Notes under the pieces: model-generated
What the model saw: only the letters and a program-made list of their open reading frames with translations
What the model was told of the DNA's origin: nothing
Databases searched by the model: none
From: Pseudomonadota bacterium
GTDB lineage: Bacteria > Pseudomonadota > Alphaproteobacteria > Rhodobacterales > Rhodobacteraceae
Direction: 5' to 3'
Assembly (NCBI GenBank): GCA_029567145.1
Contig: JAKQLM010000471.1
Span: 1-48,137, forward strand
Length of the DNA stretch: 48,137 bases
Shown: positions 18,234-48,137 of the stretch, in pieces
How positions within the stretch are numbered: the stretch's first letter is position 1
How the letters are laid out: each line of letters starts with the position of its first letter
Made by a program: the position numbers and the translations under genes

Positions 18234-18246
18234 GCTCTGGCTCCGT

Positions 18247-18777
18247 TCATTCTGCGGCCAATCTGCGGTCGAAGACCGGCGCCGGCTTGGCCTCGGCCGC
18301 GAGGATAGCATTGCGCATCCGCGCGGACAGGACCCGCACATTGGGCTCCAGCACCATCGAGTCGTGGTCTCCCGGCACCTCGACCACGTCCAGTCTGGGC
18401 GCGAACGGAGTCCAGAGATTGTCAGGGAAGACATATTCCCGCGCCGAACTGACCCAGTTCCCCTTGGTGACTTTCCAGTGGCGGTCCGGCGGTGGCCGGT
18501 ACAGGACAACCCGCCCATCCGCCCAGGGTTTCAGCTGATAGCTGCCGACAGCCTGCAGGAACGCGGCCTCGATCTCGGCATTGTGAAAGGACGGTACCGT
18601 GGGGTCCGGCTCGTGCGCCGCGATGGCCCGCCGGGATCGTTCCCATTCGATCCTTCGCCGCGCCCATTCGGCCAGGAACTTCGGGCCGCCACGACGCAGT
18701 TCTGCCATCTTTATCATGGCCTTGTCTGGGGCGGTCAAGGTCGGCCTTACCGGCATCGGGGTGTCCAGAAGTGCCAT
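18247..18777 (-). pseudogene. C-terminal half of the PKS thioesterase, in a shifted frame from the PKS ORF
   Basis: EIGQQLRAAGEEVALMALLDTPMPVRP...VVEVPGDHDSMVLEPNVRVL is a thioesterase C-terminal half; start overlaps the PKS stop as TGATG. Confidence 0.8.
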
Positions 18778-21700
18778 CAGCGCGACCTCTTCGCCGGCCG
18801 CGCGAAGTTGCTGGCCGATCTCCAGGCCGTCAGTCCCCCCCCCGAGAAGCCGCCCAGCAGGTAGGGGCCCTTCGGCTGCACCTGCCTGATTTCAGCCACG
18901 CAGTCTGCCGCCGCCGCTTCGATGGTGCGATGCGGCTCTGCATCGCCGAACAGCCCGCGCGCCTGCAGGCCGTAGAATGGCCGGTCGTTGCCCAGAAGGT
19001 GCGCCAGATGCCGCAGATTCAGAACGTTTCCGAACATCCCCGCCACCAGGAAGAAGGGTGTTCCCGGTCCGCCCTCGCCTGCGTGCATGGCCACAAGATG
19101 AGTAAAGCTCGGGCCAGCCGGATCAGCCTTGGCTGCCGCCGCCGCAGCGGTTTCATCCTCGGGCCCAATGCGGGCGGTGATCAGGGCAGCACAGCGCGCG
19201 ATCGTCGGCACTTCGAACAGCACGGAAATGGGGAGATCGATCTTCCACTGCCGACGGATCATCGCAAAAAGCCGGACAGCAATCAGCGAGTGTCCACCCA
19301 GCGTGAAGAAGTCGTCTTCCACACCCACATCGCTGACACCCAGAAGGTCGGCCCAGAAGCCAGCCAGCGTCCGCTCTACGCCCGTGCGCGGGGCGACATA
19401 GGCGGTCTCCAGGTCCGGACGCGCAAAGCCCGACCCATCCCCATCGGGCCGCACATCCAGCGCTGCGCTTTGGCGCAGCAGGGCTTGCAGGTCCAGCGAC
19501 GAGACCAGAACCTGCGGCGCATCGACCGCAAGGGCGCGCAGGAACGCCTCGGCCCCCTCTCCCGGACGGATCCCGCCCGCAAGCGCCTGTGCCAGCCGCA
19601 ACTCGGCCGGAGAGGTCGACCGCTGCACGTCATCCGCCATCACGTCACGCGGCGCGGGCGGGGCCGGTTTTGCCAGCACCTCATTGGCCGAGATCAGACG
19701 GAAGGTGATCCGCTCCACCTCCACCAGGACCTGCCCGGCAGCGTCGGTCAGGGTCACGTCGAACGCGGCCACGTCCGCACCGGCAGGTCCCGCCAGCCGG
19801 ACCCAACTGCGGATGTCTGCGGGCAAGGACGCAAAGACCCGCACCTCGCCCAGGGTCACCGGCACCCAAATCGCGTCTTCGGGGGCTTGCGGCAACAGGG
19901 CCAGCCCCCAGCCGGTGCCGATGTCGAAAAGCGCCGGATGGATCGCGCAGGTCCCGACATCGGGCGCAGCCTGGGCGGAAAGCGACAGAGTCGCAAGCCC
20001 CTCGCCCGAGCCTAGCGCCGTGGCCCGCAAGACCTGCCAGCGTGGACCGAAGGCCAACCGATCCTCTTGCGCCGAGGGAAGATTCACGCCGCCCTGCGCG
20101 CTTTGCCGCTGCGGGCAGCGCGCCCCGATTTCAGCCAGATCCAGCTTGGGTGCCGATCTTTCCAGCAGTGAAATCCCCGCCTCGGCGGTCAGCACCCAAC
20201 CCGCCGTTTCCAGCGCGCGCGCCTGCATCCTTTGCCCGCCGTCGCGCGTCCGCGTCAGAGACACACGCAGATCACGCGGCGTGTCCGCTTCCAGCCGGAA
20301 GGGCCGGAAGACGGTCAGGTCGGTCAGCGTGAATCCGGGCTTTGCCCCGATCGCGGAAAGCGCCTCGGCGGCGACTTCGGGCCAGGCCGCGCCAGGCAGA
20401 ACCGCCGTCCCGTCGCGCAAACGGTGATCATCCATCACCCAATCAGCCGCGCTGAGAGTGGACAGAAACCGGGTCTCCTCCTCGGCTTTGATCATCCGCT
20501 CAAGGATCATCATTCCGGGCAGCGGCACCGTCATGCTGGCCTGACCCTGACGGCGCGCGTCGGCGTCTGCGGCCATGCCGATCCCGGACCAGATCCCCCA
20601 GTTGATCGCCGTCACCTTGGTCTTGCCGCCTGCCCGCGACCGGGCGAAGGCATTCAAATACTCGTTCGCCGCCACATAATCCGCCTGCCCCGCTGGCGAG
20701 ATCACTGTCGAGGTCGAAGAAAACAGGACAAGCCGCGCAATGCTGCCGTCGGGAAACAACGTCCCCAGCAGTTTCGTCCCGTGCACCTTGGGCGACAGGA
20801 CCGCCTCTGCGGCCCCCGGGTCCTTGCCCAGCAGCGGCGCATCTTCGACCGTGCCTGCCGCATGGATCACGCCGTGGGCCGCCCCCAGCTCCAGCCTGAC
20901 GCGGTCCAGGGCGACGCGCATTTCCTCGGGGTTGCAGACATCCGCTGCCAGCGCCAGCACCTTGCCCAGACGCTGCAATTGCGCCAACACGCCCGCCCGG
21001 ACGCTTCCCGGCTCGGGCAGGTGCCGCCCGATCAGTGCCACTTTCGCCCGGCTGTCGCGGAGCAACCGCTCGGCAACCGTCACGCCAATGCCACCAAATC
21101 CGCCGGTCACGACCCAGACCGAACCTTCGGGAATCCGTTCCATTTCGGGCAGGGGAGCCGATGCCAGCCGCGCCTCTAGCCGCCGCGATCCGCGAAGGGC
21201 GGCCACCGTGTTGGCGGGGACGGCCAGCATCTCTTCTAGCAGCAGCACCAGCGTTTCGTCCGGGACTCCCTTGCGGACGCCCGAAAGCGCCACGTCCAGC
21301 ATCGCGCCAGTCAATCCCGGCAATTCGCGCGGCATCACCTTGATCGGTCCGGCCACCGTCGCCTTTTCCGGATAGGCAAGCGGTTCTTGCCGAACTTGCG
21401 CGGCACCGGACGTGACGACCAGCAGATGCGGCAAAGGTGACAACCCGATTTCGCCGATGGCCTGCCCAAGGAAGAACAGGCTCCAGAATCCCTGCTCCAG
21501 ATTGCGCTGGAAGAAGCTGCCACCGGGACGGAACGTCTCATCCGATGTCACCAGCCAAAAATGCACGATCCGCGCCGGTGACAGGCCGCGCTGGCCAAGG
21601 TCGGCCAGCAGGGCATCATAGCCTTCTCGCCCGTGTTCAGGGGCGATGATGTAGCTGTCTTCATTGGTCCGCGCGAACGCGTCGCCCGCATGGACAGTGA

Positions 21701-24871: not shown

Positions 24872-25915
24872 TTGCCTGAGGAAGGACGTATGCGGACTGC
24901 CCGATCGCGCAGGTTGTTTTCTGGTTTCGGAATTGCAACTCAGGGTGTTTCCGATGTCACTTCGGAGGCCGCAATTCCTACGACAGATAGCGCGTCGGGT
25001 TCACCGGCCCTGAACTCGGACCGGCAATCGCGCGGCCCTGGCGGGGACAGTCGAAGCTCTGGTTCCGCATCGCCCGATCTCTATACCGCACATTTCGGGA
25101 TGACCATCCGGCCCTTCGCCCTGGCCCCCGATCCCGACTTCCTGTTCTGGCCCCCGGCCCACCAGCGTGCCTACGCAATGCTGGAGTACGGGGTGATGAC
25201 CCATTCGCCGATCACGCTGATCACTGGCGACATCGGCGCGGGCAAGACCACGCTGTTGTTACATCTGATGCGGTCGCTTGGACCGGAGATCTGCGTTGGC
25301 CTGATCTCGAACCCCAGCGGCGCCCGGGCAGAGTTGCTGCGCTGGGTGCTGATGGCCCTGGGGCATCCGGTCGCGCCGGATCAAAGCTATGTCGATCTCT
25401 TCGCCACGTTCCAAAACCTGCTGATCAGCGAATACGCTGCCGGGCGTCGCGTCATGCTGATCTTTGACGAGGCGCAGAATCTTAGCGTCGAAGCGCTGGA
25501 AGAGTTGCGGATGTTCACGAACATCAACTCGGGAAAGGACGAACTGCTTCAGCTGATCCTGGTCGGCCAGCCCGAACTGCGTGACATCATCGACCGGCCC
25601 AACATGCGGCAGTTCGCCCAGCGGATCGCCGCGAACTTCCACCTTACCGCAATGGACCGCCGCACCGTGCGGGCCTACGTCGCGCATCGGCTGAAGGTCG
25701 CCGGTTGTGCGGATTGCGTCTTCACCACCCCGTCGGTCGATCTGATCCATGAGCGGACAGGCGGAGTGCCACGGCTTGTGAACCAGCTTTGCGATCTGTC
25801 GCTGGTCTATGCCTTCAGCAAGGGCCGGAAGTCCGTCACCGCAGCGACCGTTCAGCAGGTCCTGGACGATGGCGTGTTCTTCGCGGTGAAATCATTGCCA
25901 GCAAAGGACAGCTGA
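24872..25915 (+). CDS. ExeA/GspA-like AAA ATPase (exosortase/PEP-CTERM EPS-locus type)
   Basis: YTAHFGMTIRPFALAPDPDFLFWPPAHQRAYAMLEYGV...TGDIGAGKTTLL...LIFDEAQNLS. Exact start uncertain. Confidence 0.88.
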   Translation: MPEEGRMRTARSRRLFSGFGIATQGVSDVTSEAAIPTTDSASGSPALNSDRQSRGPGGDSRSSGSASPDLYTAHFGMTIRPFALAPDPDFLFWPPAHQRAYAMLEYGVMTHSPITLITGDIGAGKTTLLLHLMRSLGPEICVGLISNPSGARAELLRWVLMALGHPVAPDQSYVDLFATFQNLLISEYAAGRRVMLIFDEAQNLSVEALEELRMFTNINSGKDELLQLILVGQPELRDIIDRPNMRQFAQRIAANFHLTAMDRRTVRAYVAHRLKVAGCADCVFTTPSVDLIHERTGGVPRLVNQLCDLSLVYAFSKGRKSVTAATVQQVLDDGVFFAVKSLPAKDS

Positions 25916-25917
25916 CC

Positions 25918-27477
25918 ATGTCGCTCGACTTGCGCCACTACCTCAATCTGTTCCTGCGTCGGTTGCCTTACGTGATCCTGATCACGGCTGCCTGCACCAC
26001 GGTTGGCATCGTCTTTGCGTTTGCGATTCCGCCGGTCTTCCGCGCCGAAGCCCGGCTACTGTTCGAAAACGCCCAGATTCCCGATGAGCTTGCGGCCTCC
26101 ACGGTCGAGGCGTCCGCCGATGAAAACCTGCTTGCCATCCAGCAGCGAATTCTGACGCGGGAAAACCTGCTGGCGATGGCGGAAGACTTTCAGATTTACG
26201 CCGAAACCAAGGACGCCACCCCCGAAGTCATTGTCGAGGAAATGCGCTATCGCATCGGCATCAACATGCCCCGGCCCGAGGGTGGGACTGGCGTCATCAC
26301 CGTGTCGTTCTCGGCCCCGAACCCCGAGCTTTCCGCCGTCGTGACCAATGCGGTCGTCGAACAGATCCTGGCGCAGAACGTGAAGATCCGCACCGATGCG
26401 TCCGGGAATACCCTGGAGTTCTTCGAGCAGGAGGTTCGCCGCCTGAGCGAAGAAATGGTGGCGCAGAACGCCCGGATCCTTGAGTTTGAAACCGCGAACC
26501 GCGATGCTCTGCCCGAAAGCCTGTCCTATCGCCGGAGCCAGCAGACGGCCCTGCAGGAACGACTGCTGCAGGTCGACCGTGAGCTTGCATCCCTGCGCGA
26601 TCGGCGACAGCGGCTGGCCGATCTTTACGACCGGACCGGCAGGCTGGCGACCGCCATTGGCGATGTCACGCCCGAACAGGCCCAGCTGGAACTTCTGCGA
26701 CAGGAACTTGCCTCGGCGCTGGTCATTCTTTCTCCGACCAACCCGCGCGTCCGGGCGCTGCAAACCCAGGTCGCCGCCCTGGAAGAAGCTGTGAAAGAGC
26801 AACTTGGCGCTGCCGGGGGCGGGTCTTTGTCTTCGTTCGACGTGCAGATGCTCGATATTGACGGCCAGATCGAATACCTCGCAGAGCAGAAGCAGCAGAT
26901 CGAGACCGACCTTGCCAAGATCGAAGCCTCGATCCAGGCCACCCCCGGCAACTCGATGACGTTGGGCACGTTGACAAGCGACTACGAGAACCTTCGCGTG
27001 CAGTATGATCAAGCGGTTGCAAGCCTTGCCAACGCCCGGATGGGCGACCGGATCGAAATGACCGACCGCGGCCAGCGCATCAGCGTCATCGAACTGGCCG
27101 TCCCGCCCGCCTACCGGTCCGAACCCAACAGAAAACTGCTTGCTTTGACCGGATTTGGCGTCGGTGCCTTGCTGTCAGCGCTGATGATCACGGTGTTGGA
27201 GGCGCTTAACAGCACCATTCGCCGACCTTCCGAAATGGTGCGCGCCCTGGGGATCACGCCGTTCGGCACTATCCCGTTCCATGAAAGCAAGCTTGCCAAG
27301 AAGACCCGTCGTCGCTGGCAAATCTGGACGGCTGTCGGGGCTCTTGTCGTGCTGCCGCTGGGTATTTTTGCGCTTGTCACTCTTGTCATGCCGATGGACG
27401 CCGTGTTCGCCGCGCTGACCAAGATGCTTGGCATGGCCGACGCCGGGGCGACGACCTTGCCGGGCTCATCTGAATAG
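25918..27477 (+). CDS. Wzz/GumC-type polysaccharide chain-length determinant
   Basis: ATG at 25918 (MSLDLRHYLNLFLRRLPYVILITAACTTVG), long coiled-coil, C-terminal TM and Pro-rich PPAYRSEPNRK. Confidence 0.9.
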   Translation: MSLDLRHYLNLFLRRLPYVILITAACTTVGIVFAFAIPPVFRAEARLLFENAQIPDELAASTVEASADENLLAIQQRILTRENLLAMAEDFQIYAETKDATPEVIVEEMRYRIGINMPRPEGGTGVITVSFSAPNPELSAVVTNAVVEQILAQNVKIRTDASGNTLEFFEQEVRRLSEEMVAQNARILEFETANRDALPESLSYRRSQQTALQERLLQVDRELASLRDRRQRLADLYDRTGRLATAIGDVTPEQAQLELLRQELASALVILSPTNPRVRALQTQVAALEEAVKEQLGAAGGGSLSSFDVQMLDIDGQIEYLAEQKQQIETDLAKIEASIQATPGNSMTLGTLTSDYENLRVQYDQAVASLANARMGDRIEMTDRGQRISVIELAVPPAYRSEPNRKLLALTGFGVGALLSALMITVLEALNSTIRRPSEMVRALGITPFGTIPFHESKLAKKTRRRWQIWTAVGALVVLPLGIFALVTLVMPMDAVFAALTKMLGMADAGATTLPGSSE

Positions 27478-36747: not shown

Positions 36748-37544
36748 TGGCCCGCCTGACCGTCAAGGACCTGATGGACCAGCGCGGCAAACACCCGTTC
36801 GCCATGCTGCGGGTCGAGACGCTGGAAGAAGCCGAAGCCGCCGCCCGCGCCGGGGTGGAACTGTTGTCGGTGCCACCCGCGATGATCCTGGATGCCCGGT
36901 TTCGCGAGGCAGCGCCCGACGCCTTCGCCTTTCCGGGCGACAACTTCTACGAAATCGGCGGCACTGACGATTTCCTGCGCTGGGCTTTCCCGCTGTATAG
37001 ACGCGGGGCGGACGGGTTCTACTGCTCGGGCTCGCTGGCCACGGTCCGGGCCATGGCCGATCATGCCCTGCCGGTCTGCGGCCATGTCGGGCTGATCCCG
37101 TCGAAGCGGACCTGGACCGGCGGGTTCAAGGCGGTGGGCAAGACGTTGGACACCGCCAAGCTGGTCTGGTCCCAGGTCCGCGCGCTGGAAGAGGCCGGGG
37201 CCTTTGCCGCCGAAATCGAGGTGGTGCCGCAGGCGATCACCAAGGCGATTGCCGAACGGACCAGCCTGTTCCTGATCTCGATGGGTGCGGGCACGGCGGG
37301 CCATGCGCAGTATCTGTTCAGCGATGACGTGCTGGGCCAGAGCCGGGGCCGCGTTCCGCGCCACGCCAAGGTCTATGCCAACTTCGCCGCCGAGTATGAC
37401 CGACTGCAGGACCTGCGCATCGCCGCGATGGGGCGGTTTGTCAGCGATGTGCACGACGGCGACTACCCCGCCCCGCAACATCTGGTGGACTGCGATCCGG
37501 ACGTGGTCGGGGCGTTCCGCGACTGGCTGGAGCAGGTTGCCTAG
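36747..37544 (+). CDS. 3-methyl-2-oxobutanoate hydroxymethyltransferase (PanB)-family protein, probably a divergent paralog
   Basis: MARLTVKDLMDQRGKHPFAMLRVETLEEAEAAARAGVELLSV...VCGHVGLIPSKRTWTGGFKAVGKTLDTA...LEEAGAFAAEIEVVPQAITKAI; start overlaps the Rieske stop (TGATG). Confidence 0.8.
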   Translation: MARLTVKDLMDQRGKHPFAMLRVETLEEAEAAARAGVELLSVPPAMILDARFREAAPDAFAFPGDNFYEIGGTDDFLRWAFPLYRRGADGFYCSGSLATVRAMADHALPVCGHVGLIPSKRTWTGGFKAVGKTLDTAKLVWSQVRALEEAGAFAAEIEVVPQAITKAIAERTSLFLISMGAGTAGHAQYLFSDDVLGQSRGRVPRHAKVYANFAAEYDRLQDLRIAAMGRFVSDVHDGDYPAPQHLVDCDPDVVGAFRDWLEQVA

Positions 37545-37560
37545 GGCGCTTCCGGCAACC
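37535..37560. terminator. Hairpin GGTTGCC-N12-GGCAACC at the overlap of convergent stops
   Basis: Perfect 7-bp arms around the convergent stops of 36747-37544 and 37541-38431; no U-tract. Confidence 0.35.
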
Positions 37561-38431
37561 GCAGGCCCAGCGCTTGTTGCGCTTGCCCGCCGCTGACCGC
37601 CAGGGTCAGTAGCATCGGGCGCAGCCGTCCGGCCCGGCAGGCATCGGCCAGCGCCGGGTTCGCCGCGCCGCCCTGGTCAAGAAGGCGGCGCAGGACGGCG
37701 TCGATTCCCCCCGCCTGACGTGGGTGCAAAAAGGCCGCCAGTGCCAGTGGCGTGCCGTCGGGCCCGACCGACAGGCTAAGGCCCAGCTTCCACGCCGCGT
37801 CCAGCCCCTGCCCCGTCCAGCGCTGCAGCTCGGCCTCCAGCGCCTCGGCCAGATCGCGCAAGGCGGGGACCTGCCGCATGCGCCACAGATCCCCCGGCTG
37901 GCACCGGCGCTCCCAGTAAAGCTCGCGCTGGCCGGTGCTGGCGATGCCGGTCATCATCGGGCGATCCTGCGGCAAAAGGTGCCGCCCCAGATCGGCAAAG
38001 CCGAGGGGCACGCGCACCGCCTGGACATAGGCCTTGCCGGTGTCGCGACCCGCCCCGTCATGGCGCCCCGCGACAAAGACCGGCCAGGCGCCCGGCGCGT
38101 CGCGGCAGACGCGCCGCACCAGCCCCTCGCGCCCCGGTCCCAGGCCGGTGCCGTTGGCGCGCAGCACCGCCAGCCCGCGCCGCAACCGTCGCGGACGCGG
38201 CAGTTCGGGCGCGGCAGGTTCAGCCGTCCAGAACAGCCCCGGACGCCCGGGCCGCCAGACCAGTTCCAGCGGCGTCCCCGAGGCAAGACCAGAGAACGCC
38301 CAGGCCGCCTCGGGCCAGTCGGTGCGGTCCAGCCAGCCCAGCGCCCGGCCCAGGGCCACCCGCCCCCGCGCGACCGCGTCGGGGGCTTCGGCCTCCAGCG
38401 CGTCCAAGAGGCGGGCGAGCGCGGGGGTCAT
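37541..38431 (-). CDS. Uncharacterised protein (~296 aa), last gene of the caspase/beta-module operon
   Basis: MTPALARLLDALEAEAPDAVARGRVALGRALGWLD; ATGA overlap with the upstream 971-aa gene. The ORF extension to 38848 is out-of-frame read-through. Confidence 0.8.
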   Translation of the reverse strand: MTPALARLLDALEAEAPDAVARGRVALGRALGWLDRTDWPEAAWAFSGLASGTPLELVWRPGRPGLFWTAEPAAPELPRPRRLRRGLAVLRANGTGLGPGREGLVRRVCRDAPGAWPVFVAGRHDGAGRDTGKAYVQAVRVPLGFADLGRHLLPQDRPMMTGIASTGQRELYWERRCQPGDLWRMRQVPALRDLAEALEAELQRWTGQGLDAAWKLGLSLSVGPDGTPLALAAFLHPRQAGGIDAVLRRLLDQGGAANPALADACRAGRLRPMLLTLAVSGGQAQQALGLRLPEAP

Positions 38432-41343
38432 GGCAACAGTTCCACCAGCGTGTCGGTCACGGCAGCCGCCGCCCGTTCCACCCGGCCCCCGGCCTTCATC
38501 AGGTACTTCGCCCGCCAGCCGAACGCCTTGGCTTGCCGGTTCCGGATCGCCATCCGCAGGCGCTGCACGTCCTGGGTCGCCCCGTCGATGTCCAGCCGCT
38601 CCAGCCGGTCGATGCCGTTCGCCGGGTCCTGATAGGTCACGTCCACCAGCACCTTGCGCACCAGGTCCGGGTCCCACATCGGCACCAGGTCGATCTCGAT
38701 GGCATCCGGGAAAGGATCGTCCACCGGCAAGGCATTGGCCGTGCTGGCGGCCGGCGGATCGACGATCGGCGCGGCCCCGCCCTTCAGGTGATGCGTCAGC
38801 ACATAGGACCAGCTTCGCGCATCGGGCGACGAGGTGCGCACTTTCCACGCCTGCGCCTCATCCCCCGGCCGCACGATCAGCACCTTCGTCGCCACCCAAC
38901 CCGAGGGATCCTCGAACCGCATCGCCACTTCCACCCGGTCCACCATCGCCGCATCGATCCGGTTCGGCAGCACCTGTACCTCAATGAACCCCAGATGCGC
39001 GTGCGGGTTCACCATCAGTGTCCGGTCCATCGTCTCGAACGTGGGCACCTCATGGCTCAGCGTCTCGCCCATCCAGCCCGACCCCTGTTCCGCGTCAAAG
39101 TGGAACTGCGCCGAGGCGCGATAGCCAAGATCGCGGTTCTGGTTCAGGAAAGCCTTGAAACTGGCCCGCGTCGCCGTGCCCGCGTCAAAGATCAGGTCGG
39201 CATGCTTCAGCGTCGCCGGATCGGCGGGGCTGCCATAGTCCAGCGCCACCTGCACCGAATTCAACCCGATCCGCGCGTAATCGACCGGGGCATCCACCAC
39301 CACCTCGAACTCGCGGAAGAACGGGTCGTCCAGATCGACCTCGACAAAGTGTTTCGACAGATCGTCGATGTCGCCCAGCATCAGCCCGATGAACCCCTGC
39401 GGTGCATAGCTGCGCTGCACGGCTTCGGTCCGGTTGTAGCGCAGGGTCAGGGTCTTTCTTTCTTCCTTGTGGACGAACTTCAGCTTGAAGGACACCAGCG
39501 CGGGCATCGACGTCGGGACCGGCGGCACGATCGGCGGCACCACGACCGGGGGCGTCGTGCCGGGGGTTCCGGGCGTGCCCGGCGTGCCGGGGCTGACCAC
39601 CGGGGCGGCGCGCTGGATCGTGCCGGTCAGCCGGACCTCGGCCACCACCGGCTGCGGCGGCGGTGGCCGAGAGGCAGGGCCGGTCCAGGTGCACAGGACA
39701 TAGCGGTCCTCCTCGCGGTCGTTGCGGCCTTCGGCCTTGGCCACCGCGTGCCCCTTGGCGATGGACCGCCCGAAGCTGCCCTTGCCCTGCATCGCGGCGC
39801 GGGCGACGTCGATCCGGCGGCGCGACAGGGCCAGGTCGTGGTTCTCGCGCGCTGGGGGCGGCCCCAGCGGATCGGCCCCGGGCGCGAACTGTTCATGGCT
39901 GGCATTGCCTTCAAAGTCGATGATCCGGGGGGATGGCAGGCTGTCAAGCCAGGCCCGGAACAAGTCCGACCCGGTCAGCCCGCCTGCCGGGGCGGGTTCG
40001 CCCTCGGGTCCGCTGGCGGTCTTGAACCGGACATCCGGCGTGCGATTGCTGACGTAAAGCGCGGTCGAGGCGGCAAGCCCCGCCGCAAGCGGTTTGTCCT
40101 TTTCGAAGAACAGCTTGAACTTCCGCGTCGTGGGTTGCGGCGGCACGGTGCCACCTCCGCCACCCGACTGCGGCCAGACCACGCTGATGGTCTGAGGCAC
40201 GTTGGTGCCCGGCACGCTCAGCACGATCTTGCCGTCGCGCAGGGTTGCGGGTTGGCCACCGACCGTCGCCGTCCAGCCGGGCGGGCCATCGACGATGACC
40301 TTTTCTTCGTCGCCGGTCGAGCCTGGTTCCAGCCGCAGGGTCTGGCCTGCGGGCGGGGGTTCGGGGCTGCGTGCCACGATCAGCGTCGCGGGCTGGCGCT
40401 GGCTGGTGCCGGGCTGACCCGGCTGGCCCGGTTGCGCGGGCTGCGTCGGGTTCATCTCGCGCGCCCGCTTCATCACCGCATCCAGGCTTTCGGGCTTGGC
40501 GATCCGGCTTTCGACGTCGGCGGGGCTGATTGACGGCTCGAACCATTTGGACAGCAGGTTGTCCTTGAAGAAATCCAGCGCCCACTGTTCCTTTTCGTTC
40601 TTGTCCGCCTCGCCGGTAAAGTCGATCACTTCGATGTCGATGACCCCGTCGGCGACGAACTTTTCGAACGCCGCGTCGATCCCGGCCTTGACCCAGTAGA
40701 CCTGCGCCTCAAGGCCCGCCGAGAAATGCTGGAACATGTCCTCGTACCTGGCGGTGATCACCACCGACAGCGCGGGCCGCAGGATCGTGTATTTCAGGTC
40801 ATAGACCGCGCCGACCGGGGTCGTGCCCTTGGCAAAGGCCTGCTCCAGGATGATCGCGCCCTCTTGCGTCAGCGACAGCGAAAACGCCGCCGTGTTGTCG
40901 CCCGCAAGCGACGGTTGCGCCGCGCCACGGATCGCCTCGACCGCGCGAAAGGTGCCGGGAGGCAGGTTCGCCGGGGCCGAGGTGCCGCCCGACCCTTCCA
41001 GGTCCAGCGCGATGCAGCGCACCGTGCCTTCGTCAAACGGGATCGCCGACAGCGTGACCGCCCGGGTCACGCCCGGCAGGCGGCGCAACTGGGTCTTGAT
41101 CGACCGTTCGGTATCCGCCGGCAGCTTCAGGTTGACCTCGAAGGTCGCGAACCCGCCGCCCTTGGCCCCCGCCGCCACGGCGGCCGGGCGGAACTTGATC
41201 ATCGACAGGGCTGGCCGACCGTCCAAAGCGCGCTTGGCCAGCGCGACCGGGGCGGGCAGGTACCAGTACTGGTTGGGGTCGGCGTGGTCCGAAAACACTG
41301 TCACGCCATCGACCGTCAGCGTCCGTGCGCCAAGCTGTTGCAT
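38428..41343 (-). CDS. Uncharacterised 971-aa protein: conserved N-terminal domain, Pro/Gly linkers, OmpA-like insertion, C-terminal beta-sandwich-like modules
   Basis: VTVFSDHADPNQYWYLPAPVAL; IDFEGNASHEQ...ENHDLALSRRRIDVARAAM; HFVEVDLDDPFFREFEVVVDAPVDYARIGLNSVQVALDYG; paralogous to 42279-44531. Confidence 0.88.
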   Translation of the reverse strand: MQQLGARTLTVDGVTVFSDHADPNQYWYLPAPVALAKRALDGRPALSMIKFRPAAVAAGAKGGGFATFEVNLKLPADTERSIKTQLRRLPGVTRAVTLSAIPFDEGTVRCIALDLEGSGGTSAPANLPPGTFRAVEAIRGAAQPSLAGDNTAAFSLSLTQEGAIILEQAFAKGTTPVGAVYDLKYTILRPALSVVITARYEDMFQHFSAGLEAQVYWVKAGIDAAFEKFVADGVIDIEVIDFTGEADKNEKEQWALDFFKDNLLSKWFEPSISPADVESRIAKPESLDAVMKRAREMNPTQPAQPGQPGQPGTSQRQPATLIVARSPEPPPAGQTLRLEPGSTGDEEKVIVDGPPGWTATVGGQPATLRDGKIVLSVPGTNVPQTISVVWPQSGGGGGTVPPQPTTRKFKLFFEKDKPLAAGLAASTALYVSNRTPDVRFKTASGPEGEPAPAGGLTGSDLFRAWLDSLPSPRIIDFEGNASHEQFAPGADPLGPPPARENHDLALSRRRIDVARAAMQGKGSFGRSIAKGHAVAKAEGRNDREEDRYVLCTWTGPASRPPPPQPVVAEVRLTGTIQRAAPVVSPGTPGTPGTPGTTPPVVVPPIVPPVPTSMPALVSFKLKFVHKEERKTLTLRYNRTEAVQRSYAPQGFIGLMLGDIDDLSKHFVEVDLDDPFFREFEVVVDAPVDYARIGLNSVQVALDYGSPADPATLKHADLIFDAGTATRASFKAFLNQNRDLGYRASAQFHFDAEQGSGWMGETLSHEVPTFETMDRTLMVNPHAHLGFIEVQVLPNRIDAAMVDRVEVAMRFEDPSGWVATKVLIVRPGDEAQAWKVRTSSPDARSWSYVLTHHLKGGAAPIVDPPAASTANALPVDDPFPDAIEIDLVPMWDPDLVRKVLVDVTYQDPANGIDRLERLDIDGATQDVQRLRMAIRNRQAKAFGWRAKYLMKAGGRVERAAAAVTDTLVELLP

Positions 41344-41357
41344 GATCCCGGTCCCCC

Positions 41358-42266
41358 CTAGCGGCTGTCGACAAAGCCGTCGAGAAAGTTCTCGACCATG
41401 CGGTTGTCCTGCCCGATCAGCTGCGGCGACTGGACCAGGCCCAGGCCGGGGTAGACCTGGTTGATGTAGTCCACCACCTTGGCGCTTGCCTCGTCCACCA
41501 GGCTGCGGTGGTCGATCTTGAAGCTGGACTGGTTGACGATGTCGAGAATGGACCTGGTCAGAAACCCGTTCTTCACCGCCGAATTGGGCAACCCTTCCAG
41601 GCTGGATTCGTTCGGCGCACAGCCCGAGATCAGCGTGGTCTTGGCCTGCGGAATCGTCGTGAACCGGGGCGATGGATCAAGGTCGATGTGCCCATTTTCC
41701 AGTCGCAGCCCGCTGACATTGTTGTCGCAGACGATCCGGTCTTGCGGCGACAGCAGCGACCCGCAGGGAATGATTGTGGTGACCGTCTGGGTGATCAGCT
41801 CGACCAGCGTCTGCTCCATCGGCGGCGATTTCGCCTCGGCTTCCAGCGACAGCCCGCCGGAATGGCAACTGTCGAAGACGCAGGTAAAGTTGACGTGGCT
41901 GGGCTGCAGCTGGTCGGCGATCAAAAACAGCTCGTGGTCCGAAATCCAGCGACCCGAGGCGGGGATGATCACCTCGTACGCGCGGCCGATCTGCCGGGGA
42001 TGCGGCAACCGGCTGCCGTGACCCGAGAAGTAAAAGCAGATCACGTCGCCCGGCTGCGATTGCGTCACAGTGTAGCGCAGAGCCTGCAGGATGCGTTCGG
42101 AACTGGCAGCCGTATCAAGGTAGCACAGGATGTTTTCCGGCAGGAAATCGAAGGCGTCGATCAGCAGGTGATAAAAGGCGCGGGCATCGCGGACGCACAT
42201 CGAAAGGCCTGTGATCCTTTGGATGGAGTAGTCGTTGATCCCGACGACAACAGCTCGTTTGGTCAT
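41358..42266 (-). CDS. Caspase-like cysteine peptidase (clan CD, C14/metacaspase type)
   Basis: MTKRAVVVGINDYS...GDVICFYFSGHGSRLP (His codon 42018-42020) ...CVFDSCHSGG (Cys codon 41865-41867). Confidence 0.93.
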   Translation of the reverse strand: MTKRAVVVGINDYSIQRITGLSMCVRDARAFYHLLIDAFDFLPENILCYLDTAASSERILQALRYTVTQSQPGDVICFYFSGHGSRLPHPRQIGRAYEVIIPASGRWISDHELFLIADQLQPSHVNFTCVFDSCHSGGLSLEAEAKSPPMEQTLVELITQTVTTIIPCGSLLSPQDRIVCDNNVSGLRLENGHIDLDPSPRFTTIPQAKTTLISGCAPNESSLEGLPNSAVKNGFLTRSILDIVNQSSFKIDHRSLVDEASAKVVDYINQVYPGLGLVQSPQLIGQDNRMVENFLDGFVDSR

Positions 42267-42278
42267 GGGAAAAGTCCT

Positions 42279-44531
42279 TCAGTCTGAAATGGCGATAAGG
42301 GTTTCAAGGGTATCGGTGACAGTGTTCGTGATCATCGCGCCCGAGGTCGGCACGAGGGTGATCTTGACGTCGAACGATTTTTTCGCCCCGGCAGGCAGAC
42401 CGATCCTGACCTCGCGGTCGGTGTCTTCCGGCGTCAGGCGGATGCGTTCCTTGCGGCTGTAATTCAGCCGGGTGTCGGCATAGGCAAAGTCGACAAAGGC
42501 CATCCGCGTCCGCTCCGGGTCCAGGATCGGGATCAGTTGCAGGTCCAGGCTTTCGGGGAAGGGATCGTCGATCTGGATCGTGGTGGCCTCTGTGCTGCCC
42601 GCCGTGCCGGGGCGCCTGGTGCGGTCCTTCATCATGAAGGTTGGAGTGAAGCTGACGGTCCGGTCGGCCGGATCGTCGAACCGCAGCTTCCAGTCGGTCG
42701 CGGGGGCGTCCTTGGTCAGGCTGACCACCCGCTTGCGCGCGCCGTTCTGCAGGGCGACCTCGACCTTGGTGATCTGCCCCCAGTCCACCGGACCGGCGGC
42801 GACCTGGATCACGCCGATACCAAGATGATCATGCGGGTTCAGGACCAATGTGCGATCAGAGCTGCGGAACGGCCCAAGGCTGTAGGACAGCGCCTTGCCG
42901 TCGAACCCCGCGCCGGGGTCAAAGTGATACTGGACCGTGTAGTCGTACTCTTGCACCTCGCCCGAGTTCTGAAAGATCTGCCAGCCCTGTTCGGCGGGCG
43001 CGTCGCCTTCGAACCGCAGGTCCTTGTGCTTGACCCCGCCGGGATCGGTCGGCTTGCCGTAGGACAGCGCAACCTCCACCGCCTTCAGGCCCAGCCTGGA
43101 CATGTCCGACAGCGTGTTCACCCGGATGTCCATCACCCGGAAGAACGGATCGTCCAGGTCGATCTCCATGAAGTGACTTGCCCGGTCCAGGTCCCCGGCC
43201 AGGAGCCCGACAAAACCCTGCGGTGCATAGCTGCGCTGCGTGGCCTCGGCGCGGGCGTAGCTGAACGTCAAGGTCTTGCGTTCGTCCTGGGCGACGCCCC
43301 GGAACCGGAACGAGGCGACGGCCTGTGGCGGGGCATCGCGGTCCGCCCCCGTGGCTGGCGTAGCCGTGGGGGCCGCCCCTGCCGGCAGACCTGGCGCGGG
43401 GGTGGCGCGCGTCACCCCGGACTGCGCCGCGGTGCCCAGCTCGGCCGGGGTGGCGGCCCCTGCCGCTTCGCCCGTGCCGTCGGTCGCTTCCTCGGCCCCG
43501 GCCGGGGGGGCCGCGACCGCGCCGGGCGTCTTGCCGCCATGGCCGGTGCCAACCGTCGCGCTGTCCTCGGGGTCTGCCGCCGGGCCGGGCCGGGCCGGGG
43601 TTTCCCCGTCCGTGGGGCGCGTCGGCGCAGGCGTCGGCGGCGGGCGCAACTGGTTGGCGCGGGTCAGGACGGCATCCAGGCCTTCGGTGGTCGGAAAGCC
43701 GTTGACGACGGTGCCCAGCGTCAGCGAGGGGGTGAAATACTTCTCCAGCAGGTGATCCTTGAAGAAGTTCAACGCCCAGGTTTCCTTTTCCGCCGCATCA
43801 GAGGCGTTGGCAAAGTTCAGGACCTTGATCTTGATCGACCCGTCCTGCACCAGCCGCTCCATCGCCTGGTCGATCCCGGTGCGCAGGAACATCACCTGGG
43901 CCTCGCCGCTGACGGCAAACTGGCGATAGACCCGCTCCATGTTCGCGGTGATCGTCACCTCCAGCGACGGCCGCATGCCCGAGTATTTCAGGTCATAGAT
44001 CACCCCCACGGGGCTGCCGCCCTTGGCAAAGGCCTCGTCCAGGATCGTCGCGCCCTCTTGCGTCAGGGTCAGGGAAAAGCTGGCCCGGTTCGCGGCATCC
44101 AGTGACGGGGTCGTGGCCCCCAGCGCGGTTTCCACCGCCCGGAACCCGCCGGGGGGCAGGGCCGCCCGGGGCGTGCCGCCGCCGCCGCTGTCCAGGTCCA
44201 GCGCGATCACCCGGACCGTGCCTTCGTCGAACGGCACGACCGACAGCCGGGGGCGCCCGCGCGACACACCGGCCAGCTTGGCCAAGATGCGCCGCTCCAG
44301 GCTTGGGTCCAGCAGCATGTCTACCGACAGCATCAGAAAGCCGCCGCCCTTTGCCTCGGTCCCCGCTTGGGCGGCGCGGACCTTCAGGAAGGTGAACTCG
44401 GCCCGACCGTCCGACCTGCGGCGGGACAGCTGGACCGGGCCGGGCAGGAACCAGAACTGCGCGGGGTCGGCGTGGTCGGCAAAGACCTGGATGCCCTCGA
44501 TGGTCCAGGACTGCGAATTGAGCAAAAGCAT
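42279..44531 (-). CDS. Uncharacterised 750-aa protein: conserved N-terminal domain, low-complexity linker, C-terminal beta-sandwich-like modules
   Basis: IQVFADHADPAQFWFLPGPVQLSRR...SYAPQGFVGLLAGDLDRASHFMEIDLDDPFF; paralog of the 971-aa protein. Confidence 0.88.
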   Translation of the reverse strand: MLLLNSQSWTIEGIQVFADHADPAQFWFLPGPVQLSRRRSDGRAEFTFLKVRAAQAGTEAKGGGFLMLSVDMLLDPSLERRILAKLAGVSRGRPRLSVVPFDEGTVRVIALDLDSGGGGTPRAALPPGGFRAVETALGATTPSLDAANRASFSLTLTQEGATILDEAFAKGGSPVGVIYDLKYSGMRPSLEVTITANMERVYRQFAVSGEAQVMFLRTGIDQAMERLVQDGSIKIKVLNFANASDAAEKETWALNFFKDHLLEKYFTPSLTLGTVVNGFPTTEGLDAVLTRANQLRPPPTPAPTRPTDGETPARPGPAADPEDSATVGTGHGGKTPGAVAAPPAGAEEATDGTGEAAGAATPAELGTAAQSGVTRATPAPGLPAGAAPTATPATGADRDAPPQAVASFRFRGVAQDERKTLTFSYARAEATQRSYAPQGFVGLLAGDLDRASHFMEIDLDDPFFRVMDIRVNTLSDMSRLGLKAVEVALSYGKPTDPGGVKHKDLRFEGDAPAEQGWQIFQNSGEVQEYDYTVQYHFDPGAGFDGKALSYSLGPFRSSDRTLVLNPHDHLGIGVIQVAAGPVDWGQITKVEVALQNGARKRVVSLTKDAPATDWKLRFDDPADRTVSFTPTFMMKDRTRRPGTAGSTEATTIQIDDPFPESLDLQLIPILDPERTRMAFVDFAYADTRLNYSRKERIRLTPEDTDREVRIGLPAGAKKSFDVKITLVPTSGAMITNTVTDTLETLIAISD

Positions 44532-44543
44532 GGGGGCCTCCTC

Positions 44544-46856
44544 TTACGGTGCCGGAATGGACAGATGTGCCGCGTCCGAGCGCGCCCAGTCGGTGCGCTT
44601 GGTCATGCCGTTCTTGAACAGGAACTTTGCGCGCCAGGTGTAGGCATCGCGGGTCGCGTCCATGTAGTCGAACTCAAAGGTCTTGCGCCCGCCCGGGGCT
44701 TCGAACACCGCCATGTCGGCGATATCGGTGCCGTCCAGATCGTCAGTATAGGACAGTTCCACCTCGACCTTCGCCAGCTTCGGGCGACCGAAATCCGCAG
44801 GCGGCGTCACGGTGATGATCCGGTGGCCCTTCATGTCGGGCCGGACCAGAATGCGCGGGCTTTCGGTAAAGCTTTCCGGCACTTCCAGCACCATGCCGCC
44901 CAGCATCACAGTGGTGACCTTGAAGCTGACCAGCTTTCGCGCCCGGTCCTTGCGGTCGATCACGAACTTCTTCGGGCTGCGGTCGTCAGGGGTGAAGGTC
45001 AGGCTTTCGGCCTGCTCGATCCCGTTGGCCGGATCGCTGTAGGCCAGATCGACAAAGACCTGCTCCACATCCTCCCACCGGGGCACCACCGGCACCACGT
45101 CCACCGCCAGCCGCAGGCTGCCAAAGGGATCGCGGATGTCCACAAGGTCGCCGCTGGCGGGCAGCCAGCCGGTATCCTCGTCCTTGTGGTTCGCTGCCTG
45201 ATGCAGCACGCGGTAGCTGAAGTCGCGCTTGGCCTTGTCCAGCGCGATGAAGGACCAGGCCGGACTGGCGGTGTCCTTCTTCACGACGATGGTGTCGTCG
45301 GTCTTGATGCCGTTGCCCGCATCCTCGTACCGCAGCATCACCTGCGCCTGCGGATACTTGTCCCAAGGGTAGGCGGGCGAGGACACGATGGGGATCGTCA
45401 CCCGGCTGAAGTATTCGGCAGGCTGCACCTCGAACACGTCGCCGGACAGCACCTGCCGGGGCGCGGTCACGACCAGCGGACGCTCGCCCCCGGCGTCCGG
45501 CTTGAACCGCACCGTCAGGTCGGCGGACACCGGACGCGCCATCGCACCGTTTTCCATCACGGACGACCACTTGACCGTCTCGTCCTTGCCCGTTTCTTCC
45601 AGCACCACGGTCCGGACCTGACCGCCATAGTCCAGCACCGCCTGGATCGAGGCCAACTGGTCGCGCGCCATCTCGCCCCGGTTGATCACGCGGACGCGGC
45701 GTTCGGCAAAGAACGGATCGTCCGCGTCCACCTCCAGGATGAACCGTGCCGGGTCGATCCCGTCCGCCAACGCCGTGAACAGGCCCGACACCGTGCCCTG
45801 CGGATAGATCGTTCGCACCACAGCCGAGCGTTCGGAAAATTCAACATCCAGCTTGCGCTTGTCGATGCGGGTGTAGTTGGTCTTCTTGTAGCTGAAGCTG
45901 CCGATGAAGCCGCCGATCCCGCCCGTGGCGCCCATCATCGCCGCCTGCCGCCCGAAATGGCTGATCGTGTCGATCGCCTTGTCCCAGCCGTCGGGGCGTT
46001 CCTTCATCGGCGGCAGGCTTGCCTCGAAAAAGCCGTCGGTGATCATCTCTTGCACGCGGGTGCGGGCGTCTTCGAACCGGGCGGCGACCGACTTGCCGGC
46101 ATCACCCACGTCGGGAACGAAATTGTCGGCCTCCATCGTGATGACCTGGCTTTCGACCAGCTTGTCGACGGCATTGTTGATCTCGGTCGTGGTGAAGAAA
46201 CTCTCGTGGCCAAAGGTTTCGTCCATCGCCGTCTGCACCCGGTCCCAGTCGATCTTCAGCCGGACGCTGAACGCAGGCCGCAGCCCCGCGAAATCCACCG
46301 AATAGACCACGACCATCGGCGTGATCTCGCCCTTAAGCGCCGCCTCCATGATCGCGGTGCCCTCGGCGTCCAGCTCCACGCTGAACGAGGCACCATTGTC
46401 GCCGAAAAGGGCGGGCTTGGCGAAATGCGTGGCCTTCAGGACAAACCGGGGCGCTTCGGCCGGGGTCGTCGGTTGGCCGGGACGCGGCGGCGGGGCGGTC
46501 GACACCGACTCCCGCCCCATGATCAGAAGCCGGACCGAACCATCCAGCGGCTGGATCGGCGCGACCGAGGGCTGGCGCGGCAGGCGGCCCAACCGGCGGA
46601 TTTCGGACGCCAGGTTGTCCACCTCGGTCTCGGACAGGCCCAGATGCACGTCAAAGGTCAGGAACCCGCCCTTGCCCGCCACCAGCGACCGATACTTGAT
46701 CAACTGGATGCGCGGCACCTCTTTGCCCGTCGCCGGATCGGTGGTGGTCCGCAGCCGGGGCTGGGCCAGCGCATAATAGTACTGCAACGGGTTCGCATGG
46801 TCGCGAAACACCGAGATGCCGTTGATGTAGTAATAGGGGGCGTCCAGATACAGCAT
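44544..46856 (-). CDS. Uncharacterised ~770-aa protein, third paralog of the beta-module family (alternative start 46877)
   Basis: ISVFRDHANPLQYYYALAQPRL; FILEVDADDPFFAERRVRVINRGEM; four C-terminal modules (YEDAGNGI, YSDPANGIEQ, YTDDLDGTD). Confidence 0.85.
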   Translation of the reverse strand: MLYLDAPYYYINGISVFRDHANPLQYYYALAQPRLRTTTDPATGKEVPRIQLIKYRSLVAGKGGFLTFDVHLGLSETEVDNLASEIRRLGRLPRQPSVAPIQPLDGSVRLLIMGRESVSTAPPPRPGQPTTPAEAPRFVLKATHFAKPALFGDNGASFSVELDAEGTAIMEAALKGEITPMVVVYSVDFAGLRPAFSVRLKIDWDRVQTAMDETFGHESFFTTTEINNAVDKLVESQVITMEADNFVPDVGDAGKSVAARFEDARTRVQEMITDGFFEASLPPMKERPDGWDKAIDTISHFGRQAAMMGATGGIGGFIGSFSYKKTNYTRIDKRKLDVEFSERSAVVRTIYPQGTVSGLFTALADGIDPARFILEVDADDPFFAERRVRVINRGEMARDQLASIQAVLDYGGQVRTVVLEETGKDETVKWSSVMENGAMARPVSADLTVRFKPDAGGERPLVVTAPRQVLSGDVFEVQPAEYFSRVTIPIVSSPAYPWDKYPQAQVMLRYEDAGNGIKTDDTIVVKKDTASPAWSFIALDKAKRDFSYRVLHQAANHKDEDTGWLPASGDLVDIRDPFGSLRLAVDVVPVVPRWEDVEQVFVDLAYSDPANGIEQAESLTFTPDDRSPKKFVIDRKDRARKLVSFKVTTVMLGGMVLEVPESFTESPRILVRPDMKGHRIITVTPPADFGRPKLAKVEVELSYTDDLDGTDIADMAVFEAPGGRKTFEFDYMDATRDAYTWRAKFLFKNGMTKRTDWARSDAAHLSIPAP

Positions 46857-46930
46857 GACGAAAAGACCTTCATCCAAAAGGGGTTAGAGCCGGGCGCGCA
46901 AGGGGAGAGGAGCGCGCCCGGCCCCGCGCT

Positions 46931-48137
46931 TCAGGCCGGAAGTTCCAGCACCAGCGCCTCGTCCGAGGACGAGAAGGCAGCCTCTTTCTTCGATCCGTCC
47001 TTCAGAAAGAACTTGGCCGCGACGCTGTATTCCGTCTTGGTCTTGTCCTTGATGTTGACGGTCCAGGGGTCCGGCATCGCGCCATCGACCAGCCGCACGC
47101 TGTCGGTCTCGGCAATGCCGTTCAGCCGGTCCTCGTATTTCAGCGTCAGCATCACCAGCTTCAGCGCGTCCCAGTCCAGAAGGTCGGTCACCAGATCGAC
47201 CTTCAGCTGCAGCACATCCTCGCCCTCCAGCACGGTGTTGCCGGTCACCGTCTTCTCGCCGATCTCCAGCGGAGGCCGCCCGTCGCGATAGACGATCTGG
47301 CCACGATACTTCAGCGTGCCCTGCTTTTCGCTGATCACCGGGAACGACCAGTCGGTGAACCGCTGCCCATCCTGCGAGAAGGCAAAGGACTGGGTCTGGC
47401 GATAGCCGTTGGCGCTGTCGTCGTATTCGAAGTCCAGGAACAGCTGGTCGATCACATTGGCGAAATCGCCCTTGGTGCGGATCGACAGCGTCCGGATCGC
47501 CGAGAACGGATCGTTGACGTAAAGCTGATCGCCCTCGCTGCTCGCTTCCGGCACGTTGATCTCGCGCCCGCCCTTCATGAAGTACTTCAGCTTGTACTTC
47601 CACGGCTGGCTCAGCGGCTTGAAGATGACCTCGCGGATCTGGTGGCTGCGCTTGTCCGGCGTGATGGTGAACTGGCGTTCCAGGTTCACCGTGCCATCCT
47701 TGTAGGTGCAGGTCAGTTGCGCCTGCGCGACCTCTTCAAAGTTGATGTCGCCGACGTCGATATCCACCTTCCAGATGCCCAGGTCGCCCACGTTGATCGA
47801 CACGTCCGACTTCGACGTCATCGGCGGCGATTTGTAGACCTGCGCCTCGCCCTTGTAGTTGACGGTGTAGTGGTAGGTGAACTCGCCCTCGCCACCATCG
47901 TAGAACGCCTCGAACCGATAAAGGTCCTCGGGCTTGCGAAAGGTATAGGTCTTGGCCGAGCCCTGCCCCGTCTTGCCCTTGTAGCTGACCTGCGCGATCA
48001 CGCTGGCGATGGGCAGGTCGGCGAAATCGGCGTTGACCATGAAATTGGCGGCAAAGCTCTTGAAGAACGGGTCGTCCGCATCGACGGTGATCGCATAATC
48101 GTCCCATTTCAGCGCCTTGCCGCCCACGGTGATCGAC
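46931..48137 (-). CDS. Fourth beta-module paralog, 5' part beyond the right window edge
   Basis: YAITVDADDPFFKSFAANFMVNADF plus about 93-aa modules (FEYDDSANGYRQ, LKYEDRLNGIAETDS); open to the right edge. Confidence 0.85.
   Translation of the reverse strand, partial: SITVGGKALKWDDYAITVDADDPFFKSFAANFMVNADFADLPIASVIAQVSYKGKTGQGSAKTYTFRKPEDLYRFEAFYDGGEGEFTYHYTVNYKGEAQVYKSPPMTSKSDVSINVGDLGIWKVDIDVGDINFEEVAQAQLTCTYKDGTVNLERQFTITPDKRSHQIREVIFKPLSQPWKYKLKYFMKGGREINVPEASSEGDQLYVNDPFSAIRTLSIRTKGDFANVIDQLFLDFEYDDSANGYRQTQSFAFSQDGQRFTDWSFPVISEKQGTLKYRGQIVYRDGRPPLEIGEKTVTGNTVLEGEDVLQLKVDLVTDLLDWDALKLVMLTLKYEDRLNGIAETDSVRLVDGAMPDPWTVNIKDKTKTEYSVAAKFFLKDGSKKEAAFSSSDEALVLELPA

What the first reader, a model, noticed from the sequence alone, without database searches (positions are those of the whole stretch)
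37541..48137. Caspase-like peptidase within an operon of four large paralogous beta-module proteins: candidate undescribed system
Seen directly: a tight minus-strand gene string (gaps of about 12-14 nt, or ATGA overlap, over most of it) encodes four paralogs. All share a (V/I)D(L/A)DDPFF module. The three with visible N-termini also share a V(F)xDHAxPxQ(Y/F)(W/Y) N-terminal motif. A C14-type peptidase with an intact dyad sits between two of them, and a ~296-aa unknown closes the operon. Established: prokaryotic clan CD caspase-like peptidases often sit in conflict or programmed-death systems and cleave genetically linked partners. I recognise no described system with this architecture. Inference: the beta-module proteins form a multi-subunit assembly that is a substrate, regulator or scaffold of the peptidase.
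Basis: partly seen in the sequence, partly recalled or inferred. Interest (0 to 1): 0.9.

Follow-up and report, generated by a model that had tools for sequence, protein, structure and literature searches.

The report
Mobile six-paralog operon with swappable caspase
A gene string carried by scattered bacteria of many phyla, and by one archaeon, encodes six related giant proteins with no recognised relatives, and one lineage of it has gained its own dedicated caspase-like protease, so it looks like an undescribed multi-protein machine whose attached enzyme can be exchanged.

Summary
A minus-strand operon encodes four large paralogs, an intact C14 caspase (H83/C134) and a 296-aa protein. The window ends inside it: contig C448 overlaps by a unique 141 bp and adds the rest, giving nine genes and six paralog families in the order F9-F8-F7-F6-F5-F2. 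Outside the caspase, no window operon protein matches Pfam, NCBIfam, PADLOC or PHROGs above background. The shared N-terminal module models well (pLDDT 86) but has no PDB counterpart; behind it sit Ig-like repeats. The 296-aa protein is not unknown: it is a DMATS-type prenyltransferase relative (E=2e-8).

Across 60 related loci in about nine phyla the core order is conserved and most lack the caspase. Twelve operons in five phyla carry it, always directly after an F2 copy lacking an OmpA-like insert (9/22 versus 0/22, p=0.0014). This caspase subfamily is almost confined to the operon. Most other operons have the prenyltransferase in that slot; the window has both.

Best reading: a cytoplasmic hetero-oligomeric machine whose F2 subunit pairs with an exchangeable enzyme, the caspase being one. 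A defence role is possible but unsupported: flanks are ordinary genes and no NTPase or sensor is present. Function is inferred.

The parts
46931..48137 (-). F6 paralog, C-terminal 401 of 728 aa (Ig-like repeats, VDADDPFF); start lies on contig C448
   Evidence: ORF; 141-bp unique contig overlap; phmmer to F6-type proteins of Paracoccus and Pararhizobium E about 1e-31 to 1e-30
44544..46856 (-). F5 paralog, 770 aa: N-module plus Ig-like repeats
   Evidence: hhalign F2-F5 100%
42279..44531 (-). F2-short paralog, 750 aa, without OmpA-like insert; the type of copy that precedes the caspase in caspase-type operons
   Evidence: AlphaFold model m1f8230d0866b pLDDT 77
43698..44531 (-). N-terminal module (residues 1-278) of F2-short: predicted alpha/beta fold shared by the paralog families
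   Evidence: model m5b146284b9e1 pLDDT 85.8, pTM 0.68; no PDB match at E<=0.001; hhalign with F7, F8, weaker F9
42279..43274 (-). C-terminal tandem Ig-like beta-sandwich repeats of F2-short (residues 420-750)
   Evidence: pLDDT mostly above 85; Foldseek to C3, alpha2-macroglobulin, TIE, pilus adhesins, FN3
41358..42266 (-). C14 caspase-like peptidase, 302 aa, catalytic H83 and C134
   Evidence: PF00656 E 5.3e-18; metacaspase-4 structure E 1.4e-20; dyad conserved in intact operon homologues
38428..41343 (-). F2-long paralog, 971 aa: N-module, low-complexity linkers, OmpA-like insert, Ig-like repeats
   Evidence: tree places it with F2-long of Reyranella, SH-aLRT 100
39664..40146 (-). OmpA-like insert of F2-long (about residues 400-560)
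   Evidence: profile A12: RmpM 1r1m E 0.049, also YiaD, YfiB, OprF; Pfam OmpA 0.15-0.21 in relatives: weak but consistent
37541..38431 (-). F1, 296 aa, DMATS-type aromatic-prenyltransferase relative; last gene of the operon
   Evidence: profile A8 against PDB: 6zrx E 2e-8, CymD 3.8e-5; invariant P54, E56, K133, Y135, E170, Y172

Best explanation
The finding is part of a horizontally mobile, self-contained operon that builds a cytoplasmic, hetero-oligomeric protein machine. SHOWN: six paralog families (F9-F8-F7-F6-F5-F2) in fixed order across about nine phyla; a shared N-terminal module without a solved counterpart (clear in F2, F5, F6, F7, F8; weaker in F9); Ig-like repeat arms; a variable enzyme after F2, usually either a dedicated caspase or a DMATS-type prenyltransferase relative (with or without a DxDDT-motif protein), the window carrying both; the caspase directly after an F2 copy lacking the OmpA-like insert. 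INFERRED: the N-modules assemble the subunits; F2 is the exchangeable adaptor or client that gives each machine its enzyme; F2-short binds the caspase and is its substrate or activator, so that a change sensed by the assembly releases or directs proteolysis. What the machine senses or does for the cell is not known.
For: Fixed gene order and near-universal core in the loci with full flanks. N-module homology by profile-profile comparison: F2-F5 100%, F2-F6 100%, F2-F8 97.7%, F2-F7 96.3%, F8-F9 86%, F5-F9 77%. Confident N-module model with no PDB match; Ig-like arms. Caspase after F2 without insert 9/22, after F2 with insert 0/22, Fisher p=0.0014, not corrected for relatedness; on the F2 tree the caspase label needs 2 changes against 9.3 in shuffles, 0 of 500 as low. 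Operon caspases are a near-exclusive subfamily: of 16 matching stretches in 8 caspase-type genomes only one weak one (E 2.8e-5) lies on another contig, and four genomes with caspase-less operons have none. Tails alternate F2-CASP(-CASP), F2-CASP-F1, F2-CASP-F2long-F1, F2long-F1(-TOR). Other enzymes in a related operon: PLD-like, tyrosinase and trypsin-like in Paracoccus. No TM segment or signal peptide in most of the proteins by a simple hydropathy scan.
Against: Assembly, cleavage and enzyme activity are untested. The link of caspase with insert-less F2 is partly shared descent. F9 shares the N-module only weakly. An OmpA-like insert and collagen-like linkers in F2-long would fit the envelope better than the cytoplasm, and the 558-aa F8 has one hydrophobic stretch above the usual TM threshold. 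F1 is absent from several caspase-type operons, so not every machine has it. 13 insert-less F2 proteins have no caspase after them.
Confidence: 0.42

Rival explanations
1. A conflict or anti-phage system: the Ig-repeat assembly recognises an invader and unleashes the caspase (or another effector) for abortive death.
For: Sporadic distribution (only the own genome of 61; 2 of 191 in the class, own included), presence on large plasmids, several different enzymes in one operon family, and one homologous operon directly downstream of EAD1-trypsin, EAD1 and STAND-like ATPase genes, parts typical of the NTP-dependent conflict systems of PMC7159879.
Against: No NTPase, EAD or nucleotide sensor in the window operon or seen in most homologues; flanking genes are mostly metabolic, with 5 single-member PADLOC families among 79 neighbours; most operons have no recognisable toxic effector; apart from a generic caspase model nothing matches PADLOC.
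Confidence: 0.25
2. A biosynthetic or protein-modification machine: the DMATS-type protein (and in some operons a DxDDT-motif protein) prenylates an aromatic residue or small molecule held by the paralogs; the caspase matures or releases the product.
For: F1 keeps the P-x-E and K-x-Y motifs; TOR proteins keep an invariant DxDDT motif like class II terpene cyclases (motif recalled, not a profile match); F1 is the commonest tail gene.
Against: An invariant Glu replaces the lysine of the second diphosphate-binding motif (E170-x-Y172 aligned to K-L-Y of 6zrx), so activity is uncertain; F1 was not found in six caspase-type loci; TOR has no profile match in the PDB; six giant structural paralogs are unusual for a small-molecule pathway.
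Confidence: 0.2
3. A particle or appendage (injection-machine-like or surface lattice) assembled in the cytoplasm and released or anchored through the OmpA-like domain.
For: Several large paralogs in fixed order, Ig-like arms, collagen-like or Gly-rich linkers and an OmpA-like insert in F2-long.
Against: No PHROG match above background, no homologue in phage or viral collections, no recognisable sheath, tube, baseplate or export gene in the operon; no signal peptides.
Confidence: 0.1

Closest known systems
C14 caspase-like peptidases / metacaspases (Pfam PF00656; e.g. metacaspase-4, 6w8s)
   Same: Same family above Pfam's cut-off, intact His-Cys dyad.
   Different: Stand-alone 302-aa form without prodomain or adaptor domain, in a subfamily almost restricted to this operon in the genomes checked.
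NTP-dependent conflict systems with EADs and swapped caspase or trypsin effectors (Kaur et al. 2020, PMC7159879)
   Same: Constant components plus exchangeable effectors, caspases among them; one homologous operon lies next to EAD1 and STAND-like genes.
   Different: The constant part here is six Ig-repeat or N-module paralogs with no NTPase and no EAD; PMC7159879 mentions neither prenyltransferases nor immunoglobulin domains.
DMATS-type aromatic prenyltransferases (6zrx, CymD 6os3)
   Same: F1 aligns over nearly its full length, with the P-x-E glutamate and first K-x-Y motif kept.
   Different: Second diphosphate motif carries an invariant Glu; encoded with giant structural proteins, not in a usual natural-product cluster.
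Ig-like repeat proteins (complement C3, alpha2-macroglobulin, TIE and pilus adhesins)
   Same: Tandem beta-sandwich arms.
   Different: Whole-chain TM-scores by query length are 0.16 or less, no signal peptide seen, and the N-terminal module has no match among solved structures.

Membership tests
C14 caspase-like peptidase | Match to PF00656 above the curated cut-off | tested here: met
   66 bits against 21.4, E 5.3e-18
C14 caspase-like peptidase | Catalytic His-Cys dyad | tested here: met
   H83 in SGHG and C134 in DSCHSGG; kept in intact operon homologues
C14 caspase-like peptidase | Proteolysis with Asp or Arg/Lys specificity | not testable with these tools
   needs an enzyme assay
DMATS-type aromatic prenyltransferase (F1) | Full-length profile similarity to DMATS structures | tested here: met
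   A8 against 6zrx E 2e-8, CymD 3.8e-5, 4yzj 4.3e-5
DMATS-type aromatic prenyltransferase (F1) | Catalytic Glu and first K-x-Y motif | tested here: met
   E56, K133, Y135 invariant in 23 sequences
DMATS-type aromatic prenyltransferase (F1) | Second diphosphate-binding motif K-x-Y | tested here: not met
   invariant E170-x-Y172 instead, so F1 is called a relative of the family, not a proven prenyltransferase
NTP-dependent EAD/STAND conflict system | Signalling NTPase or EAD encoded in the operon | tested here: not met
   no Pfam family in the window's operon proteins apart from the caspase; only the Paracoccus homologue has EAD1 and STAND-like neighbours
Described anti-phage defence system | Match of the system's core proteins in PADLOC-DB | tested here: not met
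   only the generic caspase model matches; flanks not enriched
Phage tail or contractile injection machine | Homology of structural proteins to phage proteins | tested here: not met
   PHROGs best 0.045; no match in phages or viral contigs
OmpA-like domain (F2-long insert) | Significant match to the OmpA family | tested here: inconclusive
   five of eight PDB matches are OmpA-like but best E 0.049; Pfam 0.15-0.21
Class II terpene cyclase-like (TOR, in relatives only) | DxDD motif plus profile similarity | tested here: inconclusive
   DxDDT invariant in five sequences but no PDB profile match; not found in this genome at E 0.01

The most novel reading that the evidence does not exclude
A new class of prokaryotic modular machine: an assembly of six paralogs, perhaps a pseudo-hexamer, with an unseen N-terminal fold, in which the F2 subunit is an exchangeable docking adaptor that loads a dedicated enzyme (caspase, prenyltransferase relative, possibly phospholipase D or another peptidase), spread across bacteria and archaea as one operon.
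Probability: 0.3. Interest if true: 0.92.

Novelty: categorically new. Interest (0 to 1): 0.76.

Why it matters
The operon family spans about eight bacterial phyla and an archaeon in conserved order, yet its large proteins have no family in Pfam, NCBIfam, PHROGs or PADLOC, and the shared module has no PDB counterpart. It gives a natural experiment: the same core with and without its own caspase. That makes two questions directly testable: what stand-alone prokaryotic caspases act on, and what a multi-paralog Ig-repeat assembly does inside a cell.

Tried and rejected
Phage or viral origin: no relatives in IMG/VR, none in phage records, PHROGs at background. Defence-island context: 79 neighbours scanned in Pfam and PADLOC, ordinary genes. 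AAA-ATPase neighbours in L045 and L060 looked like STAND proteins but are LuxR- and SARP/BTAD-type regulators. Caspase as recent foreign insertion: GC3 0.83 against 0.86-0.87 for the neighbours, only slightly lower, so not argued. Whole-chain Foldseek for F2 only returned generic Ig-like chains, hence the separate N-module model. A weak Rix7 match of profile A6 covers mainly the low-complexity linker and is discarded. An alignment of eight divergent paralogs was too loose for a scan. A phylum-wide genome search failed on the server. The other three caspases of this genome, on C190, C39 and C30, lie in longer open frames and other contexts and were set aside. TOR was sought in this genome and not found. 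Literature searches found no description; the held library lacks most subscription journals and preprints, and no library of predicted cellular structures was available.

Full report
CHECK OF THE OBSERVATION. The minus-strand gene string is as described. The caspase is real: PF00656 at 66 bits, closest solved relatives metacaspases, dyad H83/C134. The window is a whole contig of a fragmented genome (818 contigs, estimated contamination 8%).

THE OPERON IS LONGER. Contig C448 begins with the last 141 bases of the window, and no other contig carries them. It completes the fourth paralog (728 aa) and adds 247-aa, 558-aa and 767-aa genes upstream, beyond which lies an SRAP gene. Profile-profile comparison shows that these are further paralogs: F7 and F8 share the N-terminal module with F2 and F6 at 96-98% probability, F9 at 77-86% with F5 and F8. 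So the 'four paralogs' are part of six families; the window has two copies of F2, a short one and a long one.

ANATOMY. An AlphaFold model of F2-short has an alpha/beta N-terminal region, a disordered linker (about residues 303-413) and well-modelled beta-sandwich repeats (420-750). The repeats match Ig-like chains such as complement C3, alpha2-macroglobulin, TIE and pilus adhesins, always with low whole-chain TM-scores. The N-module alone, modelled with 53 sequences, reaches pLDDT 85.8 and finds nothing in the PDB at E<=0.001, the best being 0.029. F2-long carries an extra low-complexity stretch, a small beta-like segment and an OmpA-like domain (the OmpA assignment is weak but consistent). 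Hydropathy shows no signal peptide or clear TM segment except one hydrophobic stretch in F8, so I infer a cytoplasmic machine.

THE 296-aa PROTEIN. A profile of 23 homologues matches DMATS-type aromatic prenyltransferases across nearly the whole length, 6zrx at 2e-8 and CymD at 3.8e-5. The glutamate of the P-x-E motif and the K-x-Y motif are invariant; the second K-x-Y has become an invariant E-x-Y. That these motifs are the catalytic base and diphosphate-binding residues is my knowledge of the family, not a test. Many relatives are followed by a further protein (TOR) with an invariant DxDDT motif, which I could not tie to a solved fold and which was not found in this genome.

DISTRIBUTION. 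A scan of genomes of 85,462 species returned 60 loci in Bacillota, Actinomycetota, Pseudomonadota, Nitrospirota, Bacteroidota, Cyanobacteriota, Acidobacteriota, a Kuenenia (Planctomycetota) and a Methanosarcinales archaeon. Four plasmid records also carry relatives. It is sporadic: absent from all 60 other relatives searched and found in one other genome of 190 in the class. That other genome has the orthologous operon F9-F8-F7-F6-F5-F2long-F1-TOR without a caspase. Gene order F9-F8-F7-F6-F5-F2 is the same almost everywhere.

THE CASPASE IS A CASSETTE. It occurs in 12 operons of five phyla: the window, Paenibacillus oceani, P. koleovorans, Cohnella, Micropruina, a Nocardioidaceae MAG, Hydrogenophaga, Nitrospira, Fermentimonas, Nonlabens, a Flavobacteriaceae MAG and Larkinella, sometimes in two copies. 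Among F2 proteins of at least 690 aa with room downstream, it follows 9 of 22 without the OmpA-like insert and 0 of 22 with it, Fisher p=0.0014 without correction for relatedness. On the F2 tree the trait needs two changes, against 9.3 in shuffles. In eight genomes with caspase-type operons, relatives of this caspase lie in the operon apart from one weak match, and four genomes with caspase-less operons have none. Tails are of four kinds: F2-CASP, F2-CASP-F1, F2-CASP-F2long-F1 and F2long-F1, the last two often with TOR. The window is the third kind, without TOR. In Paracoccus a PLD-like protein, a tyrosinase and a trypsin-like protein lie in the gene string, with EAD1 and STAND-like genes just upstream. 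In Pararhizobium an unassigned 588-aa protein sits in the slot before an F2; its papain-like look is by eye only.

HOW IT MAY WORK. Shown: conserved core, shared N-module, exchangeable tail enzymes, caspase tied to one F2 type. Inferred: N-modules assemble the paralogs, F2 pairs the machine with its enzyme, and F2-short is the caspase's partner or substrate. The trigger and the benefit to the cell are unknown. A conflict role fits the sporadic spread and the Paracoccus neighbours but lacks sensors, NTPases and defence-type flanks. A modification or biosynthetic role fits F1 and TOR but not the operons without F1.

NOVELTY AND LIMITS. Outside the caspase, and borderline DMATS matches in relatives, no library describes these proteins. 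PMC7159879 and PMC8195603, the nearest published framework, mention neither prenyltransferases nor terpene enzymes. The scan patterns were drawn from F2 and F5, so frequencies are not a census. AlphaFold DB and HHpred could not be searched, so a distant link of the N-module to a known fold is not excluded. The label 'categorically new' rests on architecture, not on a tested function.

Noticed in passing
window 13707-24587 (-): A hybrid biosynthetic pair: a 1603-aa protein with formyltransferase, AMP-binding, luciferase-like monooxygenase and carrier domains, next to a 1936-aa polyketide synthase with KS, AT, KR, DH, carrier and thioesterase domains.
   Followed up: partly
window 2626-5754 (-) and 25789-27477 (+): Polysaccharide-type genes flank the biosynthetic pair: a 1042-aa fusion of GT2, Gfo/Idh/MocA and epimerase domains, and a Wzz-like chain-length protein.
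   Followed up: partly
window 940-2505 (+): Intact-looking IS66-family transposase near the left end of the contig.
   Followed up: partly
L017:4020-8907: In Paracoccus sp. SMMA_5_TC, EAD1-trypsin, EAD1-only and STAND-like ATPase genes lie about 130 bp upstream of the homologous operon on the same strand.
   Followed up: partly
L018:15047-20231: On a Paraburkholderia megaplasmid only a C-terminal piece of the paralog is matched, followed within 1.2 kb by an 898-aa WD40-repeat protein.
   Followed up: no
L016:14222-15988: A 588-aa protein between paralogs in Pararhizobium has a QGAAGTC...GGHAVLAL pattern that looks papain-like by eye; no Pfam or PDB match supports it.
   Followed up: partly
L039 and L051: In Cohnella faecalis the operon copies are broken into many short frames, which suggests decay or sequencing errors; L039 appears to carry the region twice in opposite orientations.
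   Followed up: no
F2-long linkers, e.g. L052, L058, L071, L074, L078: F2-long linkers differ widely in length and are made of simple repeats such as GGTGGTGGG, GSSGGSSGG and GATGATGAT, longest in Lysobacter.
   Followed up: no
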